A stretch of 26,070 nt of DNA from a virus, in the IMG/VR virus record IMGVR_UViG_3300026533_000016, positions 1 through 26,070 of that record; one strand, given 5' to 3'. Every line of letters begins with the position of its first letter. The first letter of the stretch is position 1. Both the position numbers and the translations under genes were made by a program. This document shows positions 1 through 22,580 of this stretch, one piece after another. The notes under the pieces are model-generated. The model ran no database searches. It saw nothing but the letters and a program-made list of their open reading frames with translations, and was not told the DNA's origin.

Positions 1-57
1 GAACTAAGTACCGAACATAATAATATAGTAATACAATACTCATACACTTTTTATTCA
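1..57 (-). repeat. Dispersed ~55 bp repeat, copy 1
   Basis: Read on the minus strand, this segment contains the core AAAAAGTGTATGAGTA (within 37-53). It continues into AT-rich sequence ending near CGGTACTTAG. The same element occurs in the same orientation at 1803-1857, and on the opposite strand inside both 119-bp tandem repeats at 22352-22410 and 22471-22529. The similarity to the right-hand copies covers nearly the whole 55 bp. The two left copies flank the polymerase-like gene as direct repeats. Function is unknown. Confidence 0.8.
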
Positions 58-1802: not shown

Positions 1803-1857
1803 GGCACTAAGTAACGGACATATAACACACACATATACAATACTCATACACTTTTTA
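1803..1857 (-). repeat. Dispersed ~55 bp repeat, copy 2
   Basis: The element begins at the stop codon of the polymerase-like gene. On the minus strand it contains AAAAAGTGTATGAGTA (within 1841-1857) and ends in CGTTACTTAG. It matches copy 1 at 1-57 in orientation and is inverted relative to the copies near 22.4 kb. In the 415-bp gap 1803-2217, the stretch 1858-2032 is A-rich with no gene or structure that I recognise. The rest holds a terminator and a partial group I intron. Confidence 0.75.
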
Positions 1858-2032: not shown

Positions 2033-2066
2033 AGAAATGAGGCTACCACACCTCATTTCTATTTTT
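2033..2066 (+). terminator. Rho-independent terminator after the polymerase-like gene
   Basis: A perfect 10-bp stem AGAAATGAGG / CCTCATTTCT (2033-2042 with 2051-2060) with an 8-nt loop is followed by ATTTTTAT on the plus strand. On the minus strand the hairpin has no U-run, so termination of the converging sheath transcript there is less certain. It lies just past the point where the second group I intron loses its recognisable structure. Confidence 0.75.
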
Positions 2067-2088
2067 ATGATATTTTTAATTTTAATTA

Positions 2089-2235
2089 TCTTGGATGCTG
2101 ATTGACTCTATTTAAAGAATTTTTAGGGTTCGTTACTCTATCACTAGGTAATATCCTATCTTTAACCTAACAAGTGTTTCCAGCAGTTAAATAAATTTTC
2201 ATTAGATAATTGCTTATCTAGGCGGCAATCTGTCT
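2089..2235 (-). ncRNA. 5' half of a second group I intron in the sheath gene
   Basis: On the minus strand, sheath exon 2 ends ...TTCGGT at 2236. The next bases form a P1 helix: exon CGGU pairs with GCCG at 2226-2223 across a 9-nt loop, with a U.G pair at the splice site, as in the first intron. A P2 hairpin TAGATAA-gcaa-TTATCTA follows. Next come the P element (AACTGCTGG, complement of 2180-2188) and the Q element (AATCAGCATC, complement of 2094-2103). The decamer of Q and the flanking CTCTAT are shared with the complete intron at 3461-3816. Elements R, S, P7, P8 and the 3' splice site are absent down to position 1. The break falls around P6, where T4 introns often carry insertions. Confidence 0.7.
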
Positions 2236-4022
2236 ACCGAATATTGTATTATCTGTAACTGAACCATATGCAAAAGCAATATCTCCAGCATTAACAAAAC
2301 CATCTGAACCATTAGACATATAAAGAACTTTATTAACCGCAGGAGTTAAAACTGTTCCGTCAAGTGCTAATTCAGCACTAGTGAATAATCTAGAATCTGG
2401 CATTTCTACTATTGCAGTATTATCTTTAACATATACTAGAGTATCAAATTTGTTAATTATATCTTCAATATAGTTTGATTTGTTTCTGAAATCTTTAGAA
2501 CCAGGAATTAATGAAACTATGTAAGTTCCTTTAACTTCACCTTTATCTCTTATGATAACAGCAATTTCTTTCTTTGACTCAAGAGGTTTAGTTTCAAAGA
2601 AGTCATTTAGAACTAAGCCGTTAAATACATTTTGTTTTCCTGATGCGAAATCTGCTTCTTTAGCGATAGCAATTTCTACTCCATTCATTAATGCACCACT
2701 AGATTTAGCGATAAATTTTAATTTTGTATTTCCTTTAACAGGAATACTCATCTCTTTAACTTCATACTCTTCTTCGTTAGCTATGTGAATTGCTTCTAAC
2801 TTAAGTTCTTCTGCAGTTTTAGCAGTAGCACCAGTCATTGGAGCAGTTGCGATAGCATTGATTGCTGAATATTTAACTAGAACAACAGCTCCTACATTAG
2901 CAATACTTGAAAAATCAACTTTTTCACCATTAACTTCTGCTAGAACTAATTCGTAAGATTCACCTTCAACATTTTCTGTTACATTTGTTGCAGTCATATC
3001 ACCTGCTACAACCACATTTTCCATTGCAACACCAGCAACTGAAGCAGTTACAGTAATAACAGCACCATCAACAGATACATTAGTAGCATTAGTATCTACA
3101 TTTTCTATTAAAGTTGCAATCTCCGAAGCGATTTCTTCTTTAGTATTATCTGCAGTTGCTGAATAAGTAACTTCTTGACCTCTGTTCTTAACTGTATAAT
3201 CAGTTTCTGAAGCTGAATTAACAGTGATAGTATCTACTTGTTTAACAGCTTCAACTGGTGCTTCAATTTCAGTTACAGTGAATGTATCTTCTGCATTAGC
3301 ATCAAATTTTAATTCAGTACCTACTTGAATTGTAGTTGGAACTTTTGTTACTTCAACTTTACCAGCTTCATTAACAGCATAAACTTCATTCTCTGAAGGT
3401 TTAAATGTTCCGTTTGCATCAACAGCACGAGATACTAAGATCTTGTTTGCATATTGTAAACTTTTTGTTCAATTAAGTTCGTTACACTTAACTCGGTTAC
3501 TTGAACCTGCTTTGAGTCTCCTCAAAGAACAGACTATATCTTTACCTACATCTTTTTATTATGTTTAGGTACTAACCACTTCCAGATTACTTAATCTGTA
3601 CTCCTCCTATGAGGATAGTCGTTGAACTTTTTCCTTATCCAATTTTGGGTTAATAGACTTAGGAACTTAGATGCTGATTGTCTCTATCTTCTTTTTATTA
3701 GACTCTTCTAACTAAGTTTCCTTGAGTTAGTGTAGTAAAGAAGCCTGAACAAGATGTTCCAGCAATTCGATTAGTTATTTTTCATAGATATTTCTACCTA
3801 AGCACTCCTTAAATTGAAGTTGTATACTTGATACCAATCATTAAAATTCGTATTCGTTGGTTTTCCGAAGTTCTCGATTAGTTCATCAACATTAGTGATT
3901 AATATAAATTTGTCACTTGGACCTTTAGTGAATACACCTGCGAATGCCGCGGTAGCGTTTCCTATTTGTGGTACTACTATTGATAAATCTATTTCGTTTA
4001 CTTCTACGCCTGGGCTCAGCAT
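2218..4022 (-). CDS. Contractile tail sheath protein (gp18-like), intron-split and lacking its C-terminal domain
   Basis: Exon 1 is 4022-3817 (start MLSPGVEVNEIDLS, RBS AAGGAG). Exon 2 is 3460-2236. Joining them gives an open frame through ...WYQVYN-FLQYANKILVSRAVD, the conserved sheath N-terminal block, with exactly 477 codons. The unspliced frame would run on six codons (RQIAA then stop at 2218). The middle carries an inserted Ig-like, Thr/Val-rich domain (roughly residues 90-230) of the kind that decorates sheath proteins. The end of exon 2 (SNGSDGFVNAGDIAFAYGSV) corresponds to the region just before the conserved C-terminal domain of sheath proteins, which is missing here. The protein polymerises around the tail tube and contracts at infection. 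It is read from a late promoter at 4179-4190. As it stands the gene is not functional unless a third exon is joined from elsewhere. Confidence 0.85.
3461..3816 (-). ncRNA. Group I self-splicing intron in the tail sheath gene
   Basis: A 356-nt intron on the minus strand. P1 pairs the exon end ACUU with GAGU across a 9-nt loop, with U.G at the splice site. P2 is UAGGUA-gaaa-UAUCUA. Core elements are P (complement of 3759-3767), Q (AATCAGCATC, complement of 3670-3679), R (GTTCAACGACTATC, complement of 3614-3627) and S (AAGATATAGTC, complement of 3532-3542); R and S form P7. The intron ends in G at 3461. Splicing restores N-F-L-Q-Y, the conserved sheath sequence. No endonuclease gene lies inside. 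Six residues further along the exon another in-frame splice point is possible but gives a less conserved junction. Confidence 0.9.
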
Positions 4023-22063: not shown

Positions 22064-22295
22064 AACTATCCCTATAAATGAAGATTGGAGGAATAATCTT
22101 CAGTATATTGTAGATAGAATTCCTTTAAACGAACAACAGCATTTCAATAAAACTTTTAAATTGAATGAAAAACTAGTCTTGGAATTAATCAAAAACAACT
22201 TCATTAAAACAAAATCTCTCTACATTGCTTGGAATTCTTTAACCAAGGACTCACAAAATAAAATTAAAGATCTTTATCCTGAATATTATATTTGA
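22047..22295 (+). CDS. Small tagged protein, 82 aa, ending YPEYYI
   Basis: MLVVVRTIPINEDWRNNLQY and onward, helical, with NFIKTKSLYIAWNSLTKDSQ and the end KIKDLYPEYYI. The ATG at 22047 is preferred to GTG at 22044 since GGAG at 22037-22040 is well spaced. The start overlaps the Cys-rich tail of the upstream gene by 17 nt. The stop codon lies within the first bases of the tandem repeat unit. Unknown function. Confidence 0.75.
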   Translation: MLVVVRTIPINEDWRNNLQYIVDRIPLNEQQHFNKTFKLNEKLVLELIKNNFIKTKSLYIAWNSLTKDSQNKIKDLYPEYYI

Positions 22296-22580
22296 TGTTA
22301 CAGACTATTAGTGGTAGTAGCTTAGTTGTTCCTTAACTTAGTATCTACTACTGAATAAAAAGTGTATGAGTACAGTATTACTACTTTATTATCTTCGTTT
22401 ACTTCATAGCTTGATGTTACAGACTATTAGTGGTAGTAGCTTAGTTGTTCCTTAACTTAGTATCTACTACTGAATAAAAAGTGTATGAGTACAGTATTAC
22501 TACTTTTTTATCTTCGTTTACTTCATAGCTTGATGTTACAGACTATTAGTGAGCTTAGTTAATCTACTAATGAATAAAAA
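22292..22580 (+). repeat. Two 119-bp tandem repeats plus a partial third
   Basis: Units are 22292-22410 and 22411-22529, nearly identical. A third, from 22530, keeps the first ~22 bases and then a shortened, diverged part up to about 22580. Each full unit forms a hairpin: GTAGTAG-CTTAGTT against AACTTAG-tat-CTACTAC (22314-22327 with 22335-22351), one mismatch and a 3-nt bulge. It is followed by the ~55 bp element with TAAAAAGTGTATGAGTA (22356-22372 and the matching site in unit 2). That element occurs inverted at 1-57 and 1803-1857. No open frame and no spacer variation, so not a CRISPR array. This fills most of the 453-bp non-coding gap 22296-22748. A replication origin, recombination site or regulatory RNA are candidates. 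Confidence 0.85.

What the first reader, a model, noticed from the sequence alone, without database searches (positions are those of the whole stretch)
2089..2236. Sheath gene ends inside the 5' half of a second group I intron: split, possibly trans-spliced, or hugely expanded intron
Exon 2 ends at 2236 on a codon boundary (477 codons), followed by P1, P2, P and Q elements homologous to the complete intron at 3461-3816. No R, S or 3' splice site is found from 2089 to position 1, and a hairpin (2033-2060) lies where P6 would continue. The sheath C-terminal domain, needed for a working tail, is not in the window. Either the intron continues past the left edge with the opposite-strand polymerase-like gene nested in its P6 loop, or the two intron halves are apart in the genome and splice in trans, or the gene was broken by a rearrangement. 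Naturally split group I introns are rare.
Basis: partly seen in the sequence, partly recalled or inferred. Interest (0 to 1): 0.82.

Follow-up and report, generated by a model that had tools for sequence, protein, structure and literature searches.

The report
Phage intron carrying a backwards gene
A tail gene of an uncultured phage is cut by a self-splicing intron whose loop holds an unrelated gene on the opposite strand; the second half of the intron most likely lies just beyond the end of the sequenced piece, as it does in a close relative, so nothing requires splicing between separate RNAs.

Summary
Sheath exon 2 ends at 2236 after 477 codons. A family model of group I intron 5' halves, built without the window, scores 2213-2088(-) at 107.6 bits, E 1e-23. 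The matching 3'-half model finds only intron 1 and nothing in 1-2300. The window is the whole record, so the genome cannot be followed to the left.

A close relative answers the question. G001 has an intron at the same codon boundary (TIFG|N), 1,584 nt long, with its 3' half and exon 3 in cis, split in the same P6 loop by a 1.25-kb insertion. That insertion holds an antisense remnant of a polymerase-like gene. The window has an intact antisense gene at the same place. The simplest reading is an ordinary cis-splicing intron with cargo in P6 that runs past the contig end, at least 2.2 kb long. G001 sheath introns reach 2.5 kb.

Trans-splicing is not needed but not excluded. Unusual here: antisense, non-endonuclease-like cargo, and nine group I introns in G001's sheath gene. 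RNA splicing is untested, and the polymerase label rests on recalled motifs.

The parts
3817..4022 (-). sheath exon 1
   Evidence: joins exon 2 in frame, 477 codons; relatives' sheath matches PHROG tail sheath and Pfam sheath domains
3461..3816 (-). complete group I intron 1 (at a different site from the L002/G001 first intron, about five codons away)
   Evidence: Rfam Intron_gpI 84 bits, E 2.7e-20
2236..3460 (-). sheath exon 2, ending ...ACA ATA TTC GGT (TIFG)
   Evidence: homology to L002/L003 stops at this point
2088..2235 (-). 5' half of group I intron 2: P1, P2, P3 5' strand, P4-P5, Q, start of P6
   Evidence: R1 model 107.6 bits over 2213-2088; P1/P2 fold; same site and layout as G001 82964-84547
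2223..2239 (-). P1 across the 5' splice site, U2236 opposite G2226
   Evidence: fold of 2242-2193
2033..2060 (.). hairpin just inside the P6 insertion: intrinsic-terminator-like on the + strand; sense-strand loop UGUGGUAG shared with L051 and L052
174..1802 (+). 542-aa antisense ORF (polymerase-like by recalled motifs only) lying in the P6 loop if the intron is cis
   Evidence: ORF; no significant family match; weak similarity to the L002 731-aa protein
3..53 (.). left copy of a direct repeat flanking the antisense ORF; also resembles the 22292-22551 tandem repeat in reverse, a plausible assembly break
1806..1857 (.). right copy of that direct repeat

Best explanation
2236-2088(-) is the 5' half of a cis-splicing group I intron in the sheath gene, at the TIFG|N boundary. 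Its P6 loop has received a cargo insertion: a terminator-like hairpin and an antisense 542-aa gene with its own ribosome-binding site. The intron continues past position 1, where the contig stops in repeated sequence, and its 3' half followed by exon 3 (NKEE-D...) lies there. After transcription of the sheath strand the two halves would fold together around the P6 insertion, the intron would leave, and the exons would join. Shown: 5' half, splice site, absence of a 3' half in the window, the homologous cis intron in G001. Inferred: the missing part, and that splicing happens.
For: R1 107.6 bits for the half. G001 intron 82964-84547 at the same boundary has both halves in cis (Q-R distance 1,254 nt); splicing its nine introns in silico gives a 769-aa sheath, ungapped and 88.4% identical to the intronless L007 sheath. 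Both insertions begin at the same P6 point. G001's holds an antisense 38-aa match to the L002 polymerase-like N terminus (25.6 bits, i-E 9e-7 among 3,022 ORFs; best in five shuffled ORF sets 12.7 bits). P6 insertions of 400 nt or more occur in 8 of 28 hand-listed cis introns and 21 of 99 in a wider scan. No orphan halves in relatives. Left-edge repeats explain the contig end.
Against: The 3' half was not seen for this phage. The antisense gene contains a predicted terminator for its own strand, and transcription of both strands could interfere. Of 21 long P6 insertions, the longest ORF is sense in 16, antisense in 1 and absent in 4, so antisense cargo is unusual. Similarity of the window ORF to the L002 protein is short and weak, and G001's 447-aa protein is no closer to it than shuffles.
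Confidence: 0.82

Rival explanations
1. Truly split intron: the 3' half and sheath C terminus are elsewhere in the genome and the exons are joined by trans-splicing.
For: No 3' half in the 26-kb record. [quoted passage not shown]
Against: The homologous intron in G001 is cis. Half counts balance in all four records with hits. The record simply ends 2.2 kb into the intron.
Confidence: 0.07
2. The sheath gene was broken by a rearrangement and is dead in this copy, or the 5' half is a remnant.
For: Only the 5' half is visible; G001's P6 insertion shows decayed ORFs.
Against: Exons 1 and 2 are open for 477 codons; the 5' half is intact, scores higher than intron 1 and keeps P1 pairing.
Confidence: 0.07
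3. Assembly chimera joining the 5' half to unrelated DNA near 2040-2090.
For: Repeats occur in this window, and metagenome contigs can be chimeric.
Against: The join is at the same P6 point as in G001, with the same order of parts (hairpin, then an antisense gene). The repeats lie at 3-53 and 1806-1857, not at the join.
Confidence: 0.04

Closest known systems
Phage group I introns with a homing endonuclease gene in a peripheral loop (T4 td, Twort, Bastillevirinae)
   Same: Same core elements, same kind of peripheral-loop insertion; most relatives here carry a sense ORF there. Genes with two or three introns and a small exon between two introns are reported in Bastillevirinae (PMC11878797, passages).
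   Different: Cargo in antisense and with no endonuclease match; the G001 relative has nine introns in one gene.
Nuclear group I introns with antisense homing endonuclease genes (Didymium S956-2)
   Same: Opposite-strand gene inside a group I intron; P6 is among the listed insertion sites (PMC3679873, passages).
   Different: Nuclear rDNA, and a real endonuclease gene.
Giant group I intron ND5-717 of mushroom coral mitochondria
   Same: Ordinary genes embedded in a peripheral loop (P8) of a group I intron (PMC6545197, abstract).
   Different: 18-19 kb and back-spliced; here about 2-3 kb expected and in P6.
Trans-spliced group I introns of mitochondria (Prasinoderma and others)
   Same: Break in the loop where cis relatives carry an ORF (PMC3873408, passages).
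   Different: Two separate pieces shown there; here only a contig end.

Membership tests
[quoted passage not shown]
   U2236 opposite G2226
group I intron | P/Q elements forming P4 with P5 between | tested here: met
   R1 107.6 bits; fold
group I intron | R/S elements forming P7, and P3' and P9 | tested here: not met
   absent from the window; the record ends within the intron, so this is a test of the visible part only
group I intron | exon joining with G at the intron end | not testable with these tools
   3' end not in the window; in G001 all nine modelled introns end in G after exons ending in U (boundaries were chosen by hand with that rule)
trans-spliced (split) group I intron | two halves on separate transcripts or loci | tested here: inconclusive
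   only one half seen; the homologous intron is cis
trans-spliced (split) group I intron | RNA joined across the junction | not testable with these tools
   no RNA data
intron with homing endonuclease cargo | endonuclease motif in the ORF | tested here: not met
   no endonuclease family for 174-1802 in Pfam, PHROGs or NCBIfam
family A DNA polymerase | profile or structure match | tested here: not met
   best is PHROG 7766 'DNA polymerase' at E 0.072; models of pLDDT 34; motifs recalled only

The most novel reading that the evidence does not exclude
In this phage lineage group I introns carry, in place of a sense-strand homing endonuclease, an undescribed polymerase-like protein family, placed antisense in P6 in two phages at one site and in sense in another intron of the same gene; in a relative (L002) the protein is fused to an HNH homing endonuclease domain. 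These proteins may take part in intron movement or in copying DNA during homing.
Probability: 0.2. Interest if true: 0.72.

Novelty: new variant of a known kind. Interest (0 to 1): 0.5.

Why it matters
It resolves an apparent split intron into a cis intron with cargo, and shows how contig ends can imitate trans-splicing. It also points to a phage lineage whose sheath gene is an intron hot spot (nine introns in one gene in G001, with exons of 10 and 18 nt), a good natural test of how many group I introns one essential, highly expressed gene can carry, and to a candidate new kind of intron cargo.

Tried and rejected
Tried without result: relatives of the window ORF 174-1802 in viral contigs (6 pattern stretches, none confirmed), phages, plasmids, PDB sequences and six relative records; relatives of the L002 and G001 polymerase-like proteins in phages. 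AlphaFold of the ORF, alone and with two weak relatives, gave pLDDT 34, so no fold search was run. Scanning viral contigs for the repeat AAAAAGTGTATGAGTA gave 18 stretches, about what chance gives for 16 bases in a collection of that size (my estimate); not followed. L090 (contig starting at sheath residue about 516, 99% identical to the L002 C terminus in the query part) was considered as a continuation of the window; nothing links it and it lacks an intron end.

Rejected: 'the hairpin is P6' (it lies after the P6 5' strand and inside the insertion); 'needs trans-splicing' (G001 is cis). L051 and L052 have introns six codons downstream (after NKEELD), not at the same site; I first took them for the same site and corrected this from the sequences. 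Three Q-R distances above 2.5 kb are probably false pairings, and 14 of 113 introns there had no 5' half by my regular expressions; neither set was resolved.

Full report
What was checked. The window is a complete virus record of 26,070 bases, so the genome to the left of position 1 is not held. The sheath gene is on the minus strand. Exon 1 (4022-3817), a complete group I intron (3816-3461; Rfam 84 bits) and exon 2 (3460-2236) give 477 open codons ending TIFG. Intronless relatives L003 and L007 run straight through this point as ...TIFG-NKEELD.... Of 79 loci from a later scan, 63 have one uninterrupted segment crossing residues 480-500 (the other 16 were not examined one by one, and one search kept 80 of 247 relatives).

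The half intron is real. Rfam does not report it even at E 10, so I built a covariance model from the 5' halves of 15 introns in relatives, none from the window. It hits 2213-2088(-) at 107.6 bits (E 1.2e-23) and intron 1 at 80.1 bits; the next hit in the window is 13.9 bits. A model of 17 3' halves finds intron 1's 3' half (105.6 bits) and nothing else, and nothing in 1-2300 with all filters off (best 8.7 bits, E 0.21). E-values of these models are rough. P1 spans the splice site with U2236 opposite G2226, and P2 follows.

The decisive relative. Scans for the missing C terminus gave 58 loci. One, L058, belongs to a 100-kb contig (G001) whose sheath is in pieces. Modelling exons by homology, with exons ending in U and introns ending in G, gives ten exons and nine introns of 337 to 2,464 nt; the product is 769 residues, without gaps and 88.4% identical to the L007 sheath. 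Boundaries were placed by hand. In the whole contig the 5'-half model has nine hits and the 3'-half model nine, all in this gene. The second intron (82964-84547) sits at exactly the window's site. Its 5' half has the same layout; then comes an insertion in P6 (Q to R 1,254 nt), then the 3' half and an 18-nt exon NKEEVD. So the homologous intron is cis, with cargo in P6.

The insertion. In G001 the P6 insertion begins with a hairpin, then an antisense fragment matching the first 38 residues of a 731-aa protein of L002 (25.6 bits, i-E 9e-7 among 3,022 ORFs; five shuffled ORF sets gave nothing or 12.7 bits). In the window the order is the same: hairpin (terminator-like on the + strand), then an antisense ORF of 542 aa. 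The window ORF resembles the L002 protein around one motif (BLASTP E 3e-5 for the pair; profile alignment score 31.2 against at most 23.4 in 60 shuffles). The 447-aa protein in another G001 sheath intron resembles the L002 protein (28.4 against at most 21.2) but not the window ORF (18.3 against up to 24.4). No library names any of them; 'polymerase-like' rests on recalled motif A and HDE-type motif C letters. The C-terminal part of the L002 protein (residues 458-668) matches a homing endonuclease PHROG.

How usual is this? In 28 cis introns that I listed by hand from a motif scan (introns lacking one of four motifs were left out), 8 have Q-R distances of 400 nt or more. Cargo in P6 is therefore common, but antisense cargo is not.

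Why the contig stops. Positions 5-84 match the reverse complement of the 22292-22551 tandem repeat, and the ORF is flanked by direct repeats at 3-53 and 1806-1857. Repeats of this kind often end an assembly; this is inference.

Mechanism. Most likely the sheath strand is transcribed through the cargo, the two halves of the core fold around the P6 insertion, and the intron is removed in cis. Shown: both the half and the cis homologue. Inferred: the unseen 3' half, splicing itself, and expression of the antisense gene from its own signals.

Literature. Antisense endonuclease genes in nuclear group I introns, with P6 among the insertion sites (PMC3679873, passages), and whole gene blocks inside a P8 loop (PMC6545197, abstract) are known. 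[quoted passage not shown] Bastillevirinae genes with two or three introns, a small exon between introns and exon skipping are described (PMC11878797, passages), and 18.5 introns per genome on average in Jug phages (PMC12363816, passages). My searches showed no phage trans-spliced group I intron and no phage gene with nine introns in what I read; the library lacks most subscription journals, so this is weak evidence of absence.

Noticed in passing
G001 80928-94381 (L082, L083): Sheath gene with nine group I introns and exons of only 18 and 10 nt; all intron halves found in the 100-kb contig lie in this one gene.
   Followed up: partly
window 10276, 14172, 14381, 15841, 16059, 16304, 17527, 18923, 19192, 22295, 25070, 25931 (ORF ends, + strand): Twelve window ORFs end in PE[YF][YFL][IL] before the stop; none in six loci of relatives. 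Looks like a shared C-terminal tag.
   Followed up: partly
L002 5659 and 9650; L083 3175 and 8478; L086 145, 3928 and 9726; L012 4911: A hairpin, mostly with a 25-nt loop, whose loop pairs with sequence just downstream (pseudoknot-like), placed upstream of endonuclease-like genes and of two polymerase-like genes; 11 hits counting the opposite-strand readings, 0 in three block-shuffled sets.
   Followed up: partly
window 22292-22551: Tandem 119-nt repeat whose core recurs at 29-52 and 1833-1856 on the other strand; function unknown.
   Followed up: no
L051 1986, L052 1667, window 2050(-): Hairpins with the same loop UGUGGUAG and different stems at the start of P6 insertions.
   Followed up: no
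L002 9760-11955: 731-aa protein joining a polymerase-like N-terminal part to a homing endonuclease domain (PHROG 655, residues 458-668).
   Followed up: partly
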